From the NCBI GenBank assembly GCA_019429465.1, contig JAHYIV010000001.1, positions 1 through 64,000 on the forward strand: a stretch of DNA of 64,000 bases, written 5' to 3'. Made by a program: the position numbers and the translations under genes. Below, one piece after another: positions 29,431 to 42,069 of the stretch (positions within the stretch are counted from its first letter, which is position 1; each line of letters begins with the position of its first letter). Below the pieces are notes generated by a model that saw nothing but the letters and a program-made list of their open reading frames with translations, did no database searches and was not told where the DNA came from. Source of the DNA: Desulfoarculaceae bacterium. Lineage in GTDB: Bacteria > Desulfobacterota > Desulfobulbia > Desulfobulbales > Desulfocapsaceae.

Positions 29431-30894
29431 TTATTGCGGCTCATCGTGACACATATTACAATCCTGCCTGATGATCTTACCGAACTTTGTTTTATGTTCG
29501 TCGTCATGACAACGGAAACATCCGTAGCCCTCGTCAGCATTCTGATGCCCCAGGTGCTGACGATAGGTTCCCCATGTCACCTTCATTTTCGGCCACACAT
29601 TGTTAAGATAGACCTCCAGAAGATATGACCCTGAAATTACCAGCTCTTTTTGGTGTTCTGCTACAAAATCAGCTCCATGACGTTTAGCCATACGTTCCAG
29701 CAGGTCCCCGACGATCTTTTCTGTGGCCTCATCCCTGCTTGTGTACTCAATTTGCAAGATAGCGATACTGTCTTCTCGTATGCCCTTAATCTCAGGATTA
29801 AGCTTCTGGGAGTGGAGACCAAAATCGACAACCCGTTCAAGATCGTCATAGACGTGGGTTGGACGATTATGACAATCAATACAGTCCATAGTTCTCCATT
29901 CCTGAGACACCCCTTCTTCGGCGGGTTCATCATTGAGAGCGTATTCTTCTGTAATTCCTCCGGGACGCGTAACCTTCACTGTACCGATTTTTGTTCGTTT
30001 TTCATCAAGAGGCTGATATTCAACCTTGATGTCACGACTTACATGCCAGTGAATTCCCTCAAAGTCGTTGGTGACCGGATTACGGCCGCCAATACGCAAG
30101 GCAACTTCCTGAACGTTAGGATCTGTCTGATTATTATTGGTATAACTAATGAATTCCTTAACTCTTTTTCCATGGAATTTTTCAGGCCAATGACAGGACT
30201 CACAGGTATCCCGTGCCGGCCTCAAGTGCTCGACCGGTGCAGGGATGGGACGGCTGAATTCCCCGTCGATTACAGCCTTTACCTGGCGGAGACCGGATAG
30301 TTTTGCCCTGACATACCAATCGGCACCGGGACCTATGTGACACGAGACACAGGGCACCTTGGCATGAGGTGAGCGCTGGTAAGCAGTATATTCAGGATCC
30401 ATAACCTCATGACAGACTACTCCGCAAAAATAGGAAGAGTCTGTAAAATGATATCCTTCATAGGCTACAAGAACCAAAACTGTGACATTAATTACCGAAA
30501 GCACCAGAAACAAGATAATCCCTTTTCTATGATGCTTATCAGCAAGATCAATTTTCAAATGTTCGACATTGAGCAGGCTGTCCTTAAACCATTTTTTTTG
30601 CCGGAAATAATAGGCCAACGGGATAAGACCCAGGCCGAGCATCATCATTCCCGGCAGAAACAGAAAGATAAAAATGGCAAAATAATGATTGCTAATCAAA
30701 CCTGACAAATGGGCAATGAGACCAAGTACTATCAGGGTAATGGATACAGTAGTCAGGGTCACTCCCAAAAAACCAAGAGGAGTTCTCCAGGTACACCCTA
30801 ACAACCTTTCCCATGCTCCGATCTCTCGCCCCTCTTCTACCGGTGAAACTTCTGGTTCTTTTACATCCTCTTCTTTTTGTTCTAAATCCGTCAT
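29431..30894 (-). CDS. NapC/NirT-type hexaheme membrane cytochrome
   Basis: 487 residues from ATG 30894 (AAGGTG upstream; a longer frame starts at 30936). Three membrane helices lie near 50-75, 80-105 and 135-160, followed by a periplasmic part with one CX3CH motif (CGVVCHEVM, as usual in NapC/NirT proteins of this group) and five CXXCH motifs (CVSCH, CESCH, CIDCH, CFRCH, CNMCH). Proteins of this type oxidise menaquinol and hand electrons to periplasmic cytochromes or reductases. Its start lies 8 bp after the stop of the sensor-like gene, so it is the last gene of the ftsH operon. Confidence 0.9.
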   Translation of the reverse strand: MTDLEQKEEDVKEPEVSPVEEGREIGAWERLLGCTWRTPLGFLGVTLTTVSITLIVLGLIAHLSGLISNHYFAIFIFLFLPGMMMLGLGLIPLAYYFRQKKWFKDSLLNVEHLKIDLADKHHRKGIILFLVLSVINVTVLVLVAYEGYHFTDSSYFCGVVCHEVMDPEYTAYQRSPHAKVPCVSCHIGPGADWYVRAKLSGLRQVKAVIDGEFSRPIPAPVEHLRPARDTCESCHWPEKFHGKRVKEFISYTNNNQTDPNVQEVALRIGGRNPVTNDFEGIHWHVSRDIKVEYQPLDEKRTKIGTVKVTRPGGITEEYALNDEPAEEGVSQEWRTMDCIDCHNRPTHVYDDLERVVDFGLHSQKLNPEIKGIREDSIAILQIEYTSRDEATEKIVGDLLERMAKRHGADFVAEHQKELVISGSYLLEVYLNNVWPKMKVTWGTYRQHLGHQNADEGYGCFRCHDDEHKTKFGKIIRQDCNMCHDEPQ

Positions 30895-30902
30895 ACAGCA
30901 CC

Positions 30903-31820
30903 TTATTGTATACCTTTCCGGAGAATGACAGCGCACTTTTCTCCATTGTTAATAATTTTAGAAAGTATCTGCCTGTGTTCACCACTCACGTTTTCTGCTT
31001 CGCAGTAATCTGCCAACAGTTGTGAATAGTTTATAATGCCGTTAAGCCTGTTTGTGGCTTCATTAATAATTGCAGAAAACTCCATCTCTTTCCTGTTATA
31101 TGTCAGATCATCAGTGCTTTCCTCTTTGGGTTTATGAAGTAATTGATTAAAAGCAGTAACCAAGGATCTGACCTCCACACTGCTTTTTTCCTCTTTTCCG
31201 AGTTTAAAGGGGGTACCGTCCAACAGGGCCTGTTCAGCCTGTGTGGCCAGATCGATCAGGGGTTTGACAGACTTCAGGTAGAGTATGATAAGGCTAAAGC
31301 AGGTCAAAAAGATGATCGTCCCCATTAAGATAAGGGCTCTTTTCTGGTACTCCATGACCCTGTTTCTCATTTCATTAACAACGATTCTATCAAACTGCAG
31401 GAATTGCTTATTCATTTGACGAAGTTGACTCATTATTTTCAAAGTCAAATCATCATTGGCGGGATTCTCCGCTAGATTTCTCAGGTTGATCATCACCTGC
31501 CCCAGGTCCAGCGCCTGCAAAAAAGAGAGTTTGTATTGGCTTGGAATCAAACGATTATCCAGCATGGCGACATACCTGCCTTGAAGCTGCTCAAATTCCT
31601 TTGCCGCCCCGATGAGCTGTGACGGATCACGAGACAAAAGACCTTCTGTGACCTGCTCCTGGATGGTCGTATAGAGAAAGATGGTACTTTCACTTTCTTT
31701 CACAATGGTGTTGTAATCACTGCTTACGGTATTTTGCCGAAGACCTGTAAGAACGAGTATTCCCAATAAAAGGGCAACGCATATAAAGGTTACAACACTC
31801 AGCCTACGAAGCGATTGCAT
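30903..31820 (-). CDS. Sensor-like membrane protein with histidine-less DHp domain
   Basis: 305 residues: helix 7-27, a ~135-residue periplasmic helical region, helix ~165-187, a HAMP-like linker, and a last ~60 residues that align by eye with the dimerisation/phosphotransfer helices of the kinase at 36310 (both contain GIINxxQxL). At the phosphorylated His of that kinase this protein has Asn (NEATNRLNG versus HEVNNPITG). It stops right after the second helix, without an ATPase domain. It cannot be a normal kinase and may be a decoy or dimerisation partner. ATG overlaps the ftsH stop by 17 bp, implying coupling. Confidence 0.8.
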   Translation of the reverse strand: MQSLRRLSVVTFICVALLLGILVLTGLRQNTVSSDYNTIVKESESTIFLYTTIQEQVTEGLLSRDPSQLIGAAKEFEQLQGRYVAMLDNRLIPSQYKLSFLQALDLGQVMINLRNLAENPANDDLTLKIMSQLRQMNKQFLQFDRIVVNEMRNRVMEYQKRALILMGTIIFLTCFSLIILYLKSVKPLIDLATQAEQALLDGTPFKLGKEEKSSVEVRSLVTAFNQLLHKPKEESTDDLTYNRKEMEFSAIINEATNRLNGIINYSQLLADYCEAENVSGEHRQILSKIINNGEKCAVILRKGIQ

Positions 31821-33687
31821 CTACCACCTCCTGCATGGACTGACCAATGCTGCAATTGTCTTTCACGTTACAGGTGGGGCAAATATGTTCCAAATCTTTC
31901 ATCGCTGCGACTTCTTTTTTAGCACTGCATGAAACAATAATATTGAATTCCTCCCCATCCAGAGTTTCTACCTGGAGTAGAATCTCAGCCAGATTTTTAA
32001 GAAGACACTGCTCCTTTTTTAGAATACGAACTGCTTCATCATAGCAGGTGGACAGGAGTTCATTGACTTCCTGGTCAATGAGTCTGGCGGTATCATGGCC
32101 CATAGGCAAACGTCCACCAGCCCCTCCAATAAAGCCTCCGCTATCTAAAGAGAACGATTGAGGACCGAGAGTTTTACTCATTCCCCATTTACAGATCATG
32201 TCGGTCGCAATTTGAGTGGCAGTGAGCAGATCCCCCTGTGCACCTGTGGTCTGCTGTTTGAATACCAACTCTTCAGCCGCCCTTCCTCCCATGAGGACAA
32301 TAATTTTACTGCGCAGATAGTCCTTTGAATACGCAGGGTGGTCACTGATCGGCAACTGTTGGGTCTGACCAAGAGCCATGCCTCTAGGAACAATGGTGAT
32401 CTTGTGCAACGGGTCTGAGTCTGGAAGTTTGTTGGCCAGAATTCCATGGCCTGCCTCATGGTAGGCAAGGACTTTTCGATCTTTGTCATTCATTACCATT
32501 CCCTTCCGTTCTATCCCCATGAGGATACGATCACGAGCCTTTTCAAAATCCTCGTTGAGGATCTGATCTCTTCCTTTTCTAGCGGCCATTAAAGCGGCCT
32601 CATTGACGAGATTTGCCAGCTCTGCACCTGTAAAACCCGGAGTCGCCTTAGCTAAATCCTCAAACACAATTTCGGGATGCAGCGAAACCTTGCGACCATG
32701 TACTTCCAGAATTTGTATTCTTCCTTTTAGATCAGGTGGGAGTATGTTAATCTGCCTGTCAAATCGACCTGGTCGTTTCAGGGCTGAATCGAGGATATCC
32801 GGTCTATTTGTGGCCGCCAGGACAACAATAGTATCATCTGTCGCAAAACCATCCATCTCAACCAACAGGGCATTAAGCGTCTGCCCTCTTTCTTCCTGCC
32901 CTCCGGCCGAGGCCCCACTCGATCTGCTGGCACCAACCGCATCTATTTCATCAATAAAAACAATGCAGGGGGTATTTTTTTTTGCCTCTTTGAAAAGATC
33001 CCTGACCCTTGATGCCCCAACGCCTACAAACATTTCAACAAAATCGGAACCACTGAAGCTGTAAAAAGGAACACCTGCCTCACCGGCCACAGCCTTTGCC
33101 AGCATGGTTTTACCCGTTCCAGGAGGGCCCTGAAGAAGTATGCCCCTGGGAATGGTCGCGCCAATCTTCTTAAAGTTGGCAGGATGCTTAAGAAAAGAGA
33201 CAATCTCTTCCAGTTCCTCTTTGGCCTCAGGGATTCCTGCAATGTCTTCGAATGTAAGCCCAATCTCTTTTCCATTTACCCTGACCAGTTTATCGCTGGC
33301 GAATTTACTCTCTTCCTTTTCTTTAGGCTGTAATGACCACCAGACCATCATAATCAACATGACTATGAATACAGAAATAACAGTCATATAAATCAGGTTG
33401 AATCTATCTTCCTTCACTACAACACGAATATTTTGTCCCTGAATTCTTTCCAGAAACTTACTGACATCGGGTACTGTTGTCACAAAGGCATGATTATCCA
33501 GATCAGTAAAAACGACCCTGCTTCCGGTAAATTCAAGTTTGAGAATCTGATTGTTATTTAATCGCTGAATGAGTTCGCTGTAGTCCTGACTTGGATGCCT
33601 ATGCTCCATAAACCAGAGCAGAGCCAGGAACAAGGACAAAACTGAAAATAGGAAAAAAATCAGTATGTTACGGACAAGAAGGGCCAT
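31804..33687 (-). CDS. ftsH: FtsH-type membrane AAA+ metalloprotease, paralogue with Cys-rich tail
   Basis: 627 residues from ATG 33687 (GGAG upstream; a TTG start at 33723 is less likely). Two membrane helices (about 8-28 and 98-120) flank a ~65-residue periplasmic domain, then an AAA+ module with GPPGTGKT (187-194) and IDEIDAVG, the second region of homology, and the zinc protease motif HEAGH (about residue 410). FtsH degrades membrane and regulatory proteins. The C-terminus is odd: after the usual end come CPTC and a further Cys (CPTCNVKDNC), a possible metal- or redox-binding tail. It leads an operon with the pseudo-kinase and the hexaheme cytochrome. Confidence 0.93.
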   Translation of the reverse strand: MALLVRNILIFFLFSVLSLFLALLWFMEHRHPSQDYSELIQRLNNNQILKLEFTGSRVVFTDLDNHAFVTTVPDVSKFLERIQGQNIRVVVKEDRFNLIYMTVISVFIVMLIMMVWWSLQPKEKEESKFASDKLVRVNGKEIGLTFEDIAGIPEAKEELEEIVSFLKHPANFKKIGATIPRGILLQGPPGTGKTMLAKAVAGEAGVPFYSFSGSDFVEMFVGVGASRVRDLFKEAKKNTPCIVFIDEIDAVGASRSSGASAGGQEERGQTLNALLVEMDGFATDDTIVVLAATNRPDILDSALKRPGRFDRQINILPPDLKGRIQILEVHGRKVSLHPEIVFEDLAKATPGFTGAELANLVNEAALMAARKGRDQILNEDFEKARDRILMGIERKGMVMNDKDRKVLAYHEAGHGILANKLPDSDPLHKITIVPRGMALGQTQQLPISDHPAYSKDYLRSKIIVLMGGRAAEELVFKQQTTGAQGDLLTATQIATDMICKWGMSKTLGPQSFSLDSGGFIGGAGGRLPMGHDTARLIDQEVNELLSTCYDEAVRILKKEQCLLKNLAEILLQVETLDGEEFNIIVSCSAKKEVAAMKDLEHICPTCNVKDNCSIGQSMQEVVDAIAS

Positions 33688-33728
33688 TACAGTTGAGTCT
33701 CCAGGAATGAAAAGTGTTTTCAAAAAAA

Positions 33729-33858: not shown

Positions 33859-33910
33859 GTATATAAAAAAAGCCGAGAGGAAGCAATTCCTCTCGGCTTT
33901 TTTTATATAC
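33859..33910. terminator. Bidirectional terminator with 24-bp perfect stem
   Basis: Arms 33859-33882 and 33887-33910 are perfect reverse complements around a GCAA tetraloop; the GC part (AGCCGAGAGGAA) is flanked by A/T-runs on both sides, so it works on either strand. It separates the 74-aa membrane protein gene from the ftsH operon. Confidence 0.95.
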
Positions 33911-33963: not shown

Positions 33964-34188
33964 CTACATACCACTTATAGCCTTAAACCAGCTGCCGGCC
34001 AGCTGAATTGGCCCACCTGCCTGATACATGGCGCTTCCAATACAAGCTACAACCCACAATCCAACAATTCCTGTAAAGGCTGCCACGCTACCGATTACTA
34101 CTTTATCAATTTCTGCTGAAGCAGTCGTTTGACTTCTGTCTTGAACTTTGACCTGACTCTGCTCTTTCACTAGTATTCTCTCACTCAT
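33964..34188 (-). CDS. Small single-span membrane protein (74 aa), sigma-54 controlled
   Basis: A polar, charged N-terminus (~residues 1-27) is followed by a hydrophobic helix (about 29-52, VVIGSVAAFTGIVGLWVVAC) and a short Gly/Ala-rich amphipathic end (to residue 74). No family recognised. ATG 34188 follows AAGGAGA at six bases, a strong start. It stands alone between a terminator and a clear sigma-54 promoter, just downstream of a sigma-54 activator gene. Small membrane proteins in such positions often modulate kinases or proteases; here FtsH is the neighbouring gene. Confidence 0.85.
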   Translation of the reverse strand: MSERILVKEQSQVKVQDRSQTTASAEIDKVVIGSVAAFTGIVGLWVVACIGSAMYQAGGPIQLAGSWFKAISGM

Positions 34189-34262: not shown

Positions 34263-34278
34263 TGCACAATACGTGCCA
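34263..34278 (-). promoter_or_regulatory. Sigma-54 (-24/-12) promoter of the 74-aa gene
   Basis: Read on the minus strand the site is TGGCACGTATTGTGCA. It matches the consensus TGGCACG-N4-TTGCA with GG and GC ten bases apart and a single mismatch (G for T at the -12 box). The expected start of transcription is near 34252, giving a ~60-nt leader before ATG 34188. Confidence 0.85.
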
Positions 34279-34410
34279 AAATCATGCATGAGCGGATGAG
34301 CACTGTCAACTCCATAGAGAAACCGAATGTTTTGTTGATATAACAACAATATGAGAAATTAGACTGTGGCAGAAAAGAACAATGCAACCATCTAAAGACT
34401 TTCCAGCATA

Positions 34411-34470
34411 CCGTCCCGTTAGTGTCCCGTAGCGTCCCGACAGTGTCCCACAGTGTGCCACAAGTGTCCC
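34411..34470 (-). promoter_or_regulatory. Helically phased array of six GTCCC cores (putative activator binding array)
   Basis: Six cores, GTCCC five times and GTGCC once, start at 34413, 34424, 34434, 34445, 34455 and 34466. The steps are 11, 10, 11, 10 and 11 bp, mean 10.6, close to one turn of B-DNA, so all lie on the same face. The array is roughly 160-220 bp upstream of the predicted sigma-54 transcription start, the usual distance for an enhancer bound by an NtrC-type activator. Confidence 0.7.
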
Positions 34471-34517
34471 AGGGCTACACTTTTTTGATGAGGATAATGA
34501 GAATTACCCACCAAAGC

Positions 34518-36305
34518 CTAATCCTTTATATGATAGCGATGCATCTGCCGGTAGAGCGTAGAGCGAGCCATTCCCAGGAGTTTGGCAGCCTTTGCCTTGT
34601 TGCCGTTTGCTTGCCGGAGGGCATTAATAATCTTTTCATCTTCCGGCTGATACTGAGGATTTGTGAAAAACGCGCCTGTCGAGGTGTATTGAGGAATGGC
34701 CGGTAGAAAAGAGGATGTTGACAGAGCCTCCTTTACAGAGGGTCTCTGTAATTCTTCCGGTAGATGTTTTAATTGCAGCACGGCATCCTGACAAAGGACA
34801 CAGGCCCTTTCTATGACGTGCCTCAATTCTCGGACATTCCCTGGCCAGGAGTAACGCATCATACACTCTATGGCCTGATCTGAGATTACGACAATCTTTT
34901 TGCCAAGCTGTTTCCTGAAAAGTTCCAGAAAATGGTTGGCAATCAGCGGAATACTGATGACCCTCTCTCGCAAAGGAGGAATCTTGATTTCAATGACCTT
35001 AAGACGGTAGTAAAGATCTTCCCTGAATTTCCCTTCTTTCACCATTTTCTGGAAGTCGGCGTTGGAGGCGGCGATGACTCGAACATCGACATGTATTGGC
35101 TCATCCTGGCCCACCGGGGTAAAAGTCTTTTCCTGTAAGAAACGTAAAAGCAGCAATTGCGTCCGAGGCGAAATGTCCCCGATTTCATCAAGAAACAAGG
35201 TGCCACCGTCGGCTTGCAGCAACCTGCCGGCCCTGTCTCTGTCTGCACCGGTAAAGGAGCCTTTTCGATGACCAAAGAGCTCGCTTTCCAGTAAATTCTC
35301 AGCAACAGAAACACAATCGACCTTGATAAGCGGCTTGTGACGTCGTGAACTTTCGGCATGAAGTGCCTCTGCCGCCAACTCTTTACCGGTCCCGGACTCG
35401 CCTGTGACGAGAACAGCAGTATCAACTTTACCAATATTTTCTATCAGGCTATAGACCTCCTGCATGGCAGGACTGGAGTCCACAAAGCCATGAAAGTGGC
35501 TGCGATTCCCGGCACTCCCTAAGGGCTCGGCAATGATCATATCTCTGGCTACAATGACAACACCCTGGAATTCATCATCCTCACCCCGTAAAGGAGAGGC
35601 GTTTATACTGATCATCTTTGTTTTATGGTCAGGAGTAGGACATTCTATGAGATGCTTTCTTACCTCATCACCGTGCTCTAAAACCTTACGAACATCGTCG
35701 AGACAGGCAATACCTAACATATCAATCGGGAATTGATCAAAAGATGCACCACCTTCCACATCTTCATATTTCAGCCATTGTTTTGCTGTTTCATTGAGTT
35801 GAACGATCCGCAAGTTGGCATCAACGGTAATAATCGCATCACTGACCGAACGAAAAATTGTTTCCAGGTAGTGGCGATACTTTTCATTTTCCTGCTGCAG
35901 TCGTTTGGCTTTATTTTCCAGGAACCAGTGCTGTAGGGCCTGCCTGGTAAAATGGAGAAGGGTCTCTTTATTCACAGGCTTTGATATATAATCAAAGGCA
36001 CCATGCCTGACAGCCTTGGTAGCAGATTCAAGATTTGGAAAGCCAGTGATCATTACAACGGGACATTCAATTCCTGATTCTCTTATTTTGCGGAGAAGAT
36101 CGGTCCCGCCTGGACCTATCAATACAATATCACTTATAATTAAGTCATACTCAGTTTGCCCCAGCGCCTCCATGGCCTCGTCAAACGTGGCTACTGTTTT
36201 CACAAAATGATAACCTGCGGCGGTCAGGAATATTTTAAAGGTCTGCCTGATGGACTCCTCATCATCGACAATAAGAATCTTTGCAGAATATAAATATTTT
36301 TCCAT
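34518..36305 (-). CDS. Sigma-54-dependent response regulator (REC-PAS-AAA+-Fis)
   Basis: About 595 residues. Receiver domain with DD (14-15) and phospho-acceptor D59 (IISDI); a PAS domain about 145-265; AAA+ domain with Walker A GESGTGKE and the sigma-54 contact loop GSFTGA (the usual loop is GAFTGA); and a Fis-type helix-turn-helix at the end (NGNKAKAAKLLGMARSTLYRQM). It should activate RNA polymerase-sigma-54 when phosphorylated. ATG 36305 is four bases after the kinase stop, with CAGGAG inside the kinase's last codons. The phased array and -24/-12 promoter lie just downstream. Confidence 0.93.
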   Translation of the reverse strand: MEKYLYSAKILIVDDEESIRQTFKIFLTAAGYHFVKTVATFDEAMEALGQTEYDLIISDIVLIGPGGTDLLRKIRESGIECPVVMITGFPNLESATKAVRHGAFDYISKPVNKETLLHFTRQALQHWFLENKAKRLQQENEKYRHYLETIFRSVSDAIITVDANLRIVQLNETAKQWLKYEDVEGGASFDQFPIDMLGIACLDDVRKVLEHGDEVRKHLIECPTPDHKTKMISINASPLRGEDDEFQGVVIVARDMIIAEPLGSAGNRSHFHGFVDSSPAMQEVYSLIENIGKVDTAVLVTGESGTGKELAAEALHAESSRRHKPLIKVDCVSVAENLLESELFGHRKGSFTGADRDRAGRLLQADGGTLFLDEIGDISPRTQLLLLRFLQEKTFTPVGQDEPIHVDVRVIAASNADFQKMVKEGKFREDLYYRLKVIEIKIPPLRERVISIPLIANHFLELFRKQLGKKIVVISDQAIECMMRYSWPGNVRELRHVIERACVLCQDAVLQLKHLPEELQRPSVKEALSTSSFLPAIPQYTSTGAFFTNPQYQPEDEKIINALRQANGNKAKAAKLLGMARSTLYRQMHRYHIKD

Positions 36306-36309
36306 GACG

Positions 36310-37464
36310 CTAAGCTCCTGCTGGAAGTTCAATGATCATTTCCGTATATTTTTCCAGGATTGAGTTAACGCGCAGATTACCACCATGATCTTTAATTATT
36401 CCATAACTGATACTGAGCCCGAGCCCTGTACCTTCACCTGGGGGTTTAGTGGTGAAAAAAGGCTCAAAAAGACGTTCCAGAATAGACTGGGGCAGGCCTG
36501 TTCCGTAATCCTTCACCGTTATCCGGTAAACAGGGTGATCCCCATCCTGCTTCTCAAAGCACGATATTTCCATAATTTTCCTGGAATCAGACCCAGGGTA
36601 TCTGGCATTTAAGGCATAGCGGCTGTTACTGATGAGATTCAACAGCACTTGCTGCAATTGTCTGAAATCAGCAATAATAAAGGAGTTGTTCTTCGAAAAT
36701 TCAGTCACTACCTTGATTCCGTCCTTCTGCAACTGATGCTGGACCAGCGCCAGACTTGCATTTACAACTTCCACAGGATTAACGGGTTCCCGCTCACCAC
36801 TGCCTGCCCGGGCGAAAGAGATTAAATTGCGGGTAATAGAGGCTATACGATCTCCTTCTTTCATTATCTTCTGCACAATATCAATGCCTGCAGGATCAAG
36901 ATCGTAATTATCCAGAAGAATCTGGGCAAAGTTTATAATTCCGGTAATGGGATTGTTGACCTCATGGGCAACACCAGCAGCAAGCTCACCGATAGCTGCA
37001 AGTTTGGCCGTCCGTATGGAATCCACCTTTCGAATCTCATCCCCTGTAAGTTCCCTGGCAATCAGCATAATTTTAGCTATCGTACCATCCCTCTCTTTAA
37101 CAGGTAAGATAGTAAAAGAATATTCACCAAAGAGCCCGGGAAGACGCGTTTCTTCCACCTTTGGAGTACAGGTCTTAAGAAATTCTTCCAAAGGACATTT
37201 AATATGCGGCCACCGGCCGCCATGAACAATCTTGCATATTCCCTGACCAATAACTTCACTCCTGGTTTTTCGAGCCACCTGCAGGGTTGCATCATTGACT
37301 TCAATAATAATCCCATCCGGTCGGACCACCAGAACAGGATCCTGGATGCCGTTGAAAAGCTGCTCCCACGTTCCGGTGCTACTCGTTTCTTGAGGAGTGC
37401 AGCAGTCATGGCCGGTAGCGCCTTTAAAAAAATGACCAATACCCTTGATTTTTTTCATATGCAT
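36310..37464 (-). CDS. Soluble PAS histidine kinase (NtrB-like)
   Basis: About 384 residues from ATG 37464 (a TTG start at 37497 is possible). No membrane helix is visible, so it is cytoplasmic. A PAS domain (about 35-140) includes several cysteines (ICKIVHGG, HIKCPLEEFLKTC). The HisKA domain has the phosphorylated His in GVAHEVNNP, and the ATPase domain has NLISNSRYA, DYGTGLP and GEGTGLGLS. It forms a two-component pair with the activator downstream (4-bp gap). The cysteines in the sensor suggest redox or metal sensing, but that is inference. Confidence 0.92.
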   Translation of the reverse strand: MHMKKIKGIGHFFKGATGHDCCTPQETSSTGTWEQLFNGIQDPVLVVRPDGIIIEVNDATLQVARKTRSEVIGQGICKIVHGGRWPHIKCPLEEFLKTCTPKVEETRLPGLFGEYSFTILPVKERDGTIAKIMLIARELTGDEIRKVDSIRTAKLAAIGELAAGVAHEVNNPITGIINFAQILLDNYDLDPAGIDIVQKIMKEGDRIASITRNLISFARAGSGEREPVNPVEVVNASLALVQHQLQKDGIKVVTEFSKNNSFIIADFRQLQQVLLNLISNSRYALNARYPGSDSRKIMEISCFEKQDGDHPVYRITVKDYGTGLPQSILERLFEPFFTTKPPGEGTGLGLSISYGIIKDHGGNLRVNSILEKYTEMIIELPAGA

Positions 37465-37514
37465 AGCACAAACATACAGTGGGTGAATTGAATTCAAAGT
37501 TTACAAAAAAGGAT

Positions 37515-40560: not shown

Positions 40561-41024
40561 TTTTTCTATTAACCCTCATTGTATACAGAAATCATTCGTA
40601 ACTATTCACCACGTTTTGTTTGCATATGACAAACGGGAACCCTCTACGGGTTGCACCACAGGTTGACTTGTTGGCATATTACTCATCGCATACATGCTAG
40701 GGGAGCCAGCTGGCTGGCAAAGCAGGGCTTGCCGCTAGGGAAAGGCCATTGCACCATGGAACTGCACTGGCCTAAAAAAACGGTGTGGAATTCGGGAAAT
40801 CCGTAATCACCAGCCAGCTGGCTCCTACCCGAACCTGAAGAATATGAGCTAGCATTCCCAGCTAGTGATGGTAAATAGTTGCTAAAAAAAAGATAAATAC
40901 ATTATTGGAGCTTGTCAGTCAAGTATTATGAGACAATTAGCTTGGCCGGTAGATGACAATTAGTTTGTCCGGTTCACTTTGGTATAGTCCGGCCCAAAAA
41001 CTACTTTAACAAAGGGAGGTTTTG
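40561..41024. other. Intergenic region with REP-like pair and IS left end
   Basis: No gene. It holds the inverted REP-like pair (40700-40828) and, from about 40928, the left end of the IS21-type element with two GACAATTA-type repeats. Confidence 0.6.
40700..40828. repeat. REPIN-like pair of inverted repeats
   Basis: GGAGCCAGCTGGCTGG (40702-40717) and its exact reverse complement (40810-40825) face each other across ~92 bp. With the flanking GTAGGAGCC-like bases they recall the GTAGGAGCxAGC REP sequences of other proteobacteria, which move with RAYT transposases. No RAYT gene is in the window. Confidence 0.65.
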
Positions 41025-42069
41025 GTGTTGGGCAAGCCTATAAGATCAGAGAATCCAGCACAGTATCTTGCTGCACTTTGTGAAGAAGAAGTGAATCAGC
41101 GCTACAGTCGCCGCATCGCCGGTTATTTCAAAGAGTCAAAGCTGCCGGTTGGTAAAACCTTGTCTGCCTTTGATTTCAGCCAGCTTCCCGGCATTGAAGC
41201 CGGCAGACTGTCGATGCTGGCCGCGGATCCAGGCTGGGTCAAGCGGTCTGAAAATGTTCTCTTTTTCGGACCAAGCGGCACCGGTAAAACCCATCTGGCC
41301 TCCGCCAGCTGCAATGGCCTAATCGAGCAGGGTGTTCGGGTGCGCTATTACCAGGCCACCGCCCTTGTGCAGGAGATGCAGCGGGCCCGCAACGAGTTGC
41401 AGCTGGAGAAACTATTCGGCAAATTAGACAGGTACTCCGTCCTAATACTGGACGACATCGGGTATGTCAGAAAGAGTGAAGCCGAAACCCATGTCCTTTT
41501 TGAACTCATTGCCCATCGTTATGAAACCGGCAGTATGGTCATCACGGCCAATCACCCCTTCAGCAACTGGGATCAAATATTTTCAGATAGTATCATGACT
41601 GTCGCGGCAATTGACAGGCTGGTTCATCACGCAACTATCATTGAGATACAGGCAGAAAGCTTCCGCAAAAAGCAGGCAATGAGCCAGAATTGCGAGACCT
41701 CTGCTTAGAATATAACCATCGACAGGAATACTAACCCGCTCCAGCAGAATACCGTTCCTCCGACGAGCATTTGTAAGGGCCCATTCTCGGAACGGTCTTC
41801 TGCTTCCGATCACCTCGGGGATAGATGATGGAAATGGAGAATGGAAAGACAGAGGATTGGAGAGACTCTGCGATTCCGGCTCAAACCAGCGACAGAAATG
41901 GCTGATTGCAAGAATTATCAAACGGACAGTATCAATCGTTCCTCAAAGGAAAATTTTGTTATCTTGATGACTAAAAACGAAAAAAACAGGAGGGATGAAC
42001 TGAAGAAATATGCGAGAGGAAACCGGACAAGGTAATTGTCGCGAACCGGACAAAGTAATTGACATCTGA
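40928..42069 (+). mobile_element. IS21-family remnant with istB but no istA
   Basis: Both ends carry two ~20-bp terminal repeats in inverted orientation: left at 40932-40950 and 40955-40975 (GACAATTAGTTTGTCCGGTTC), right at 42021-42040 and 42043-42063. Multiple terminal repeats are typical of IS21. TATT occurs just outside both ends (40924-40927 and 42070-42073) and may be the target duplication. Between them only istB remains; istA is absent and istB's start is followed directly from the left end. Bases 41709-42020 hold no gene. Confidence 0.75.
41025..41708 (+). CDS. istB: IstB-like transposition helper ATPase
   Basis: 227 residues: Walker A GPSGTGKT (about 83-90), Walker B VLILDDIGY, sensor regions ITANHPFSNWDQIF and ATIIEI near the end. 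IstB is a AAA+ helper that prepares target DNA for IstA. The usual length is about 245-265 aa; the N-terminal ~20-30 residues seem to be missing. GTG 41025 follows AGGGAGG at five bases (TTG 41022 and 41028 are alternatives). Without IstA in cis it cannot drive transposition alone. Confidence 0.85.
   Translation: MLGKPIRSENPAQYLAALCEEEVNQRYSRRIAGYFKESKLPVGKTLSAFDFSQLPGIEAGRLSMLAADPGWVKRSENVLFFGPSGTGKTHLASASCNGLIEQGVRVRYYQATALVQEMQRARNELQLEKLFGKLDRYSVLILDDIGYVRKSEAETHVLFELIAHRYETGSMVITANHPFSNWDQIFSDSIMTVAAIDRLVHHATIIEIQAESFRKKQAMSQNCETSA

What the first reader, a model, noticed from the sequence alone, without database searches (positions are those of the whole stretch)
34263..34470. Sigma-54 promoter with six enhancer-like cores phased at one helical turn
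A minus-strand TGGCACGTATTGTGCA matches the -24/-12 consensus. About 160-220 bp upstream, five GTCCC and one GTGCC core begin at 34413, 34424, 34434, 34445, 34455 and 34466, i.e. steps of 11-10-11-10-11 bp. All six therefore lie on one face of the helix. Fis-type activators normally bind inverted repeats, so a direct-repeat array of this length is unusual. The sigma-54 activator gene is adjacent (34518-36305) and the controlled gene is a 74-aa single-span membrane protein. That this activator binds the array is inference.
Basis: partly seen in the sequence, partly recalled or inferred. Interest (0 to 1): 0.75.

Follow-up and report, generated by a model that had tools for sequence, protein, structure and literature searches.

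The report
Six-site enhancer array for sigma-54
Beside a regulator gene in a relative of the Desulfobulbaceae lies a conserved row of about six short DNA half-sites, one per helix turn, that very probably loads the regulator to switch on a small membrane-protein gene next to an FtsH protease.

Summary
The six cores are half-sites (GGGACA-like, read toward the promoter). A seventh, inverted half-site (34474-34479) makes the palindrome TGTAGC-N3-GGGACA at the promoter-distal end. Three or more phased GGGAC cores occur in 6 of 58 genomes searched (own included), each time only at this locus.

In 21 orthologous loci the sigma-54 element is kept in 21. The array sits about 110-210 bp upstream of it, mostly in 11-bp steps, and 13 of 21 hold exactly six linked half-sites under one scoring rule. 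The count depends on that rule; this window's copy has seven.

A sister circuit, also in this genome, uses GCAACA arrays. Array core and regulator recognition helix agree in 67 of 67 callable loci, but this is one evolutionary switch.

The neighbourhood is a conserved module: histidine kinase, regulator, small membrane protein(s), FtsH, a pseudo-kinase lacking the phospho-histidine, sometimes a multiheme cytochrome.

Direct-repeat sigma-54 enhancers have precedents (CbrB, Nla28), so this is a new variant of a known kind. Binding itself is inferred.

The parts
34263..34278 (-). sigma-54 -24/-12 promoter TGGCACGTATTGTGCA
   Evidence: TGGCA-N7-TGC kept in 21 of 21 type A loci; rpoN present in the genome.
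34412..34470 (-). Array of six direct half-sites (GGGACA-like, reading toward the promoter) in 11/10-bp steps
34474..34479 (+). Seventh half-site, inverted (GCTACA on +, TGTAGC on -), forming the palindrome TGTAGC-CCT-GGGACA with the distal direct half-site
   Evidence: a palindrome of this kind (relaxed pattern) found in 16 of 19 type A loci.
33964..34188 (-). 74-aa protein with one hydrophobic stretch (about residues 29-55); presumed target gene
   Evidence: hydropathy; matches in 35 of 58 genomes, own included; no Pfam or NCBIfam match at E <= 0.001.
33861..33908 (.). Terminator-like hairpin between the 74-aa gene and ftsH
   Evidence: Listed on the + strand only; on the minus strand the GC-rich core is followed by CTTTTTTTATATAC (sequence), so use as terminator of the 74-aa gene is inferred.
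34518..36332 (-). Response regulator: receiver, PAS, sigma-54 AAA+ domain, Fis-type HTH (MARSTLYRQM); presumed array-binding activator
36310..37497 (-). Histidine kinase PAS-HisKA-HATPase, presumed partner of the regulator
31804..33723 (-). FtsH-type protease with HEAGH site
   Evidence: TIGR01241 over its cut-off.
30903..31820 (-). Protein ending in a HisKA-like DHp with Asn in place of the phospho-acceptor His and no ATPase domain (pseudo-kinase); membrane segments judged by eye
29431..30936 (-). NapC/NrfH-type multiheme cytochrome

Best explanation
34412-34479 is the enhancer (upstream activating sequence) of a sigma-54 promoter at 34263-34278. The response regulator encoded at 34518-36332 very probably binds it through its Fis-type HTH, one domain per 6-bp half-site. 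The distal palindrome would seat one dimer, and further protomers line up head to tail toward the promoter on about one face of the helix, one per turn. After phosphorylation by the neighbouring kinase the AAA+ domains form a ring, the roughly 135 bp between array and promoter loop out, and sigma-54 RNA polymerase opens the promoter of the 74-aa membrane protein. Whether ftsH, the pseudo-kinase and the cytochrome are read through from it or have promoters of their own is open. Shown here: the array, its conservation, its position, and its match with the regulator's recognition helix. Inferred: binding, phosphorylation, looping, ring assembly, operon structure.
For: Phased array unique to this locus in each of the 6 genomes that have it, of 58 searched. 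Sigma-54 element in 21 of 21 type A loci. Array present at about the same position in the type A loci. Array core and recognition helix agree in 67 of 67 callable loci. Array and promoter stretches more alike between 19 loci (0.653, 0.689) than the spacer (0.592) or DNA further upstream (0.570), shuffled 0.56-0.57. rpoN present. Regulator has receiver, sigma-54 AAA+ and Fis HTH domains. Kinase, regulator, small protein and FtsH together in 27 of 40 fetched stretches.
Against: No binding or expression data. The helix/core match is a single switch on the regulator tree. Two loci with a type B regulator show no clear array (ties L052 and L198), and 12 type B calls rest on chains of one to three. 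A sigma-70-like site (TTGACA-17-CATGAT, 10 of 12, 34309-34281) also lies upstream and was not checked in relatives. The sigma-54 contact loop reads GSFTGA rather than GAFTGA.
Confidence: 0.87

Rival explanations
1. The array binds some other protein (a repressor or nucleoid protein), and the neighbouring regulator acts elsewhere.
For: No binding data; intergenic arrays can serve several proteins.
Against: Core type follows the adjacent regulator's recognition helix in 67 of 67 callable loci (one switch); the phased array occurs only beside that regulator in the 6 genomes that have it; position relative to a conserved sigma-54 site.
Confidence: 0.08
2. The repeats are a slippage product (minisatellite) without function.
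For: TRF reports short 10-11 bp tandem units here.
Against: The 6-bp cores are kept while the spacers differ between copies and loci; arrays lie at about the same place in loci whose array-promoter spacer is close to shuffled identity (0.592 against 0.562); some arrays flip orientation around a palindrome but stay in step (L095, L100).
Confidence: 0.02
3. The 74-aa gene is transcribed mainly from a sigma-70 promoter, and the sigma-54 element is minor.
For: TTGACA-17-CATGAT at 34309-34281 on the minus strand (4 such sites found in the region against a shuffle mean of 1.8).
Against: TGGCA-N7-TGC is kept in 21 of 21 type A loci, while the spacer is only slightly above shuffled identity. The sigma-70-like site itself was not looked for in relatives.
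Confidence: 0.05

Closest known systems
CbrB sites at crcZ, crcY, PP2810 (Pseudomonas putida; PMC6296734, passages seen)
   Same: Sigma-54 activator; non-palindromic 6-bp subsites (TGTTAC) in both orientations, reported on one face of the helix; monomer-wise binding proposed by the authors.
   Different: Three subsites, contiguous centres 20-25 bp apart; here about six, mostly 11 bp apart, with a distal palindrome.
Nla28 half-sites (Myxococcus xanthus; PMC9765219, passages seen)
   Same: Sigma-54 enhancer-binding protein using tandem, imperfect 8-bp repeats, often 3 to 5 per promoter fragment.
DVU2394 of Desulfovibrio vulgaris (PMC3333781, passages seen)
   Same: Response regulator of a sulfate reducer whose binding motif was found to be a direct repeat.
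   Different: No multi-copy phased array described in the passages seen.
NorR three-site enhancer (PMC2941729, passages seen)
   Same: Three enhancer sites are essential and act as a scaffold on which ring-shaped oligomers assemble.
   Different: NorR is controlled by a GAF domain, and its enhancer is described as three sites.
PilR of Pseudomonas aeruginosa at pilA (recalled, no call)
   Same: Direct (N)4-6-C/G-TGTC repeats upstream of a sigma-54 promoter.
   Different: Fewer copies; different target.

Membership tests
NtrC-type two-component bacterial enhancer-binding protein | Receiver, sigma-54 AAA+ and Fis-type HTH domains | tested here: met
   PF00072, PF00158, PF02954 all over cut-off.
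NtrC-type two-component bacterial enhancer-binding protein | GAFTGA sigma-54 contact loop | tested here: inconclusive
   Window reads GSFTGA, one residue off (translation); function of the variant not tested.
Sigma-54 promoter | GG and GC separated by 10 bp within TGGCAC...TTGCA-like elements, conserved in orthologues | tested here: met
   TGGCACGTATTGTGCA; TGGCA-N7-TGC in 21 of 21 type A loci.
Sigma-54 promoter | Transcription depends on rpoN | not testable with these tools
   rpoN gene present; no expression data.
CbrB-type enhancer | About three subsites with neighbouring centres two turns (20-25 bp) apart | tested here: not met
   Six direct sites one turn apart plus one inverted.
Nla28-type tandem half-site enhancer | Regulator binds the repeats | not testable with these tools
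   Only indirect: helix/core agreement in 67 of 67 callable loci.
Sensor histidine kinase (30903-31820) | Phospho-acceptor His and ATPase domain | tested here: not met
   Of 29 homologues examined 28 have a readable DHp motif, and all 28 carry Asn in place of His; the chain ends 30-40 residues later.

The most novel reading that the evidence does not exclude
The array is a template for one activator hexamer: about six phase-linked half-sites, one for each protomer of the AAA+ ring, nucleated at a distal palindrome and filled head to tail. A two-residue change in the recognition helix (A..Q versus D..K) separates two such circuits that coexist in one cell.
Probability: 0.27. Interest if true: 0.82.

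Novelty: new variant of a known kind. Interest (0 to 1): 0.64.

Why it matters
How sigma-54 activators assemble their hexamer on the enhancer, and how many DNA contacts that needs, is known in detail for few systems (my judgement). A naturally conserved, countable array of about six half-sites in near-fixed phase offers a clean test: remove or add one half-site at a time. The paired type A and type B circuits also suggest which helix residues set half-site specificity. The array marks an apparently uncharacterised module (kinase, regulator, small membrane proteins, FtsH, pseudo-kinase, sometimes a cytochrome); its small protein has matches in 68 of 93 genomes of this family.

Tried and rejected
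Tandem-repeat artefact: rejected. Terminator of the regulator gene: the distal palindrome has no T run after it on the minus strand, so not pursued. A wider regulon: GGGACAN{4,5}GGGACA in seven type A genomes gave 26 matches, 8 of them outside the main locus at scattered places and none in the own genome; the reversed control pattern gave 10, so the outside matches look like chance. Exact 10.5-bp phasing as a general rule: rejected, relatives use mostly 11 bp.

A strict 'always six': rejected as stated. In 21 type A loci, uninterrupted chains with exact cores range from 1 to 6; with <=1 mismatch and no added core the commonest values are 5 and 6 (6 loci each); with <=2 mismatches and nothing added, 14 have six and 3 have seven, and 3 of 840 shuffles reach four. 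In type B the commonest value is six but the spread is wide (1-7 in 54 loci, skipped turns allowed), and the uninterrupted chain is 2-4 in 44 of 54. The grammar and the added cores GCTACA/GCGACA were chosen after looking at the type A loci. 'Sharp ends' is weaker than I first thought: one search found no next step with 5 of 6 matches, but sites with <=1 mismatch would already have joined the chain; 7 of 36 next steps have 4 of 6 matches against 6% of background positions, a slight excess.

Rows dropped or mislabelled: L165-L169, L171, L172, L185, L186 and L188 (re-fetches of contigs already held) and L200 (near-copy) were left out; L189 and L206 had no promoter match; L209 is a contig start. 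L190 was entered as type B by default, but both tests call it type A, so the n=54 'B' counts hold one type A locus, and it is not among the 21. L191 was read in the wrong orientation and shows there as a tie without a regulator. Of the 75 loci, 67 were callable on both sides, 3 were ties and 5 had an array call but no regulator in the stretch. Distant loci with another kind of regulator or none (such as L044, L045, L051, L054, L063, L064, L067-L070, L136-L153) were not counted; several show TTGTCA..TGACAA-like inverted repeats instead, read by eye.

Papers: no description of this locus type was noticed in the listings; the main texts of PMC4641369 and PMC12316311 hold no 'FtsH' and no 'direct repeat'. 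This is not proof of absence, since the library holds only open-licence papers.

Full report
The observation. One search confirms every coordinate given. Minus-strand TGGCACGTATTGTGCA lies at 34278-34263. Five GTCCC start at 34413, 34424, 34434, 34445 and 34466, and one GTGCC at 34455. Read toward the promoter (minus strand) each is a GGGACA-like half-site. One more half-site was missed: TGTAGC on the minus strand, three bases beyond the distal GGGACA, which makes the palindrome TGTAGC-CCT-GGGACA. So this copy has seven half-sites, six direct and one inverted. A phased chain of that length is not chance: in 200 dinucleotide shuffles of the stretch the longest was 2, and over 19 loci 3 in 3,800 shuffles.

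Conservation. The 74-aa protein has matches in 35 of 58 genomes, own included. Three phased GGGAC cores occur in 6 of those 58, each time only beside this gene (16 overlapping matches; the reversed control pattern matched 8 times, in four other genomes and in none of the six). A search of named genomes gave 18 loci, six of them on contigs already seen in the unnamed set, as their lengths show. They are mostly uncultured Desulfobulbaceae, Desulfocapsa and other Deltaproteobacteria or Proteobacteria bins, and one cultured strain, Desulfobulbus alkaliphilus DSM 24258. With the window and two later loci (L135, L170) this makes 21 'type A' loci. All 21 keep TGGCA-N7-TGC. Their array lies about 110-210 bp upstream of it. 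Of 80 successive toward-promoter spacings in the first 19 loci, 59 are 11 bp, 5 are 10 and 3 are 12. A distal palindrome of the kind described was found in 16 of 19 with a relaxed pattern. Array and promoter stretches are more alike between loci (mean identity 0.653 and 0.689) than the spacer (0.592) or the DNA further upstream (0.570), where shuffled values are 0.56-0.57.

How many half-sites. Counting phase-linked half-sites (<=1 mismatch with AC fixed, plus GCTACA and GCGACA), 13 of 21 type A loci have exactly six, 3 have seven, 2 have five, 2 have four and 1 has two. If a skipped turn is allowed, 14 have six and the range is five to eight. The number depends on the rule: exact cores give fewer; <=2 mismatches with no added core give six in 14 of 21 and seven in 3. 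At the next expected step beyond the ends, 7 of 36 positions have 4 of 6 matches, a slight excess over the background of about 6%, so the ends are not perfectly sharp. Active sigma-54 activators are hexameric rings, and three NorR enhancer sites act as an assembly scaffold (PMC2941729, passages seen). A one-hexamer template is therefore an open and testable reading, not a result; the window's own copy, with seven, does not fit it exactly. In L095 and L100 the half-sites face each other around the palindrome and are still in step.

A second circuit. This genome holds a second copy of the module on another contig (L031, L154). Its array core is GCAACA instead of GGGACA, and many relatives have the same 'type B'. 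The recognition helix of the adjacent regulator changes with it: xARSTLYRQ in type A, xDRSTLYRK (with a few R or N variants) in type B. With array type called from DNA alone, 67 of 67 loci callable on both sides agree, 18 type A and 49 type B; 3 ties and 5 loci without a regulator make up the 75. Twelve of the type B calls rest on chains of one to three; with chains of four or more, 55 of 55 agree. On the regulator tree (quick method) type A is one clade (16 of 74 rows, support 100), so this is one switch seen many times. Type B arrays follow the same 11-bp step but are more often interrupted.

The module. In 27 of 40 fetched stretches kinase, regulator, small protein(s) and FtsH lie together; 24 of these 27 also show the 305-aa protein and 8 the NapC/NrfH-type cytochrome, among them all six nearest type A loci; some of the misses are contig ends. 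There are one to six small proteins per locus. The small protein has no Pfam or NCBIfam match and one hydrophobic stretch. The 305-aa protein has no family match alone, but its profile aligns with the kinase's dimerisation domain (hhalign probability 99.7). Of 29 homologues, 28 have a readable motif and all 28 carry Asn where all 30 kinases examined carry the phospho-acceptor His; the chain ends 30-40 residues later. I read it as a membrane pseudo-kinase (membrane segments by eye) that could pair with the kinase, as proposed for FasB and FasC (PMC12675982, passages seen); this is inference. A terminator-like hairpin (33861-33908, listed on the + strand) separates the small gene from ftsH.

How it likely works. 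The neighbouring regulator binds the half-sites, one HTH per site, forms its ring on them after phosphorylation, and through a DNA loop opens the sigma-54 promoter. rpoN is present. Binding, phosphorylation and looping are inferred from the family. Against it stand the lack of any binding data, a GSFTGA variant of the contact loop, and an unchecked sigma-70-like site.

What is known. Direct or non-palindromic enhancer sites are not new: CbrB uses three 6-bp subsites on one face of the helix, 20-25 bp apart (PMC6296734, passages); Nla28 uses tandem 8-bp half-sites (PMC9765219, passages); DVU2394 a direct repeat (PMC3333781, passages); PilR is recalled only. What differs here is the number (about six), the one-turn step, the distal palindrome and the paired second circuit. 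I file it as a new variant of a known kind.

Noticed in passing
window 30903-31820 (-): Protein with a HisKA-like dimerisation domain whose phospho-acceptor His is Asn in 28 of 28 readable homologues (of 29) and which lacks the ATPase domain: a conserved pseudo-kinase in the same gene cluster.
   Followed up: partly
L031 / L154 (own genome, contig C72): A second, paralogous module with a GCAACA-type array; its kinase-regulator pair lies about 7 kb from the promoter.
   Followed up: yes
L049, L055, L056, L059: Six tandem copies of the small membrane protein between regulator and ftsH.
   Followed up: no
L054, L063, L064, L138, L142: Distant members of the module sit behind TTGTCA..TGACAA-like inverted repeats (read by eye) and a different type of sigma-54 regulator (helix GLRTLYRK).
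   Followed up: no
window 33861-33908: Hairpin with T runs between the 74-aa gene and ftsH, with a similar one in near relatives L003, L005 and L006.
   Followed up: no
window 41022-41708 (+): Open reading frame that looks like an IstB-type transposition helper ATPase (recognised from memory; no search made).
   Followed up: no
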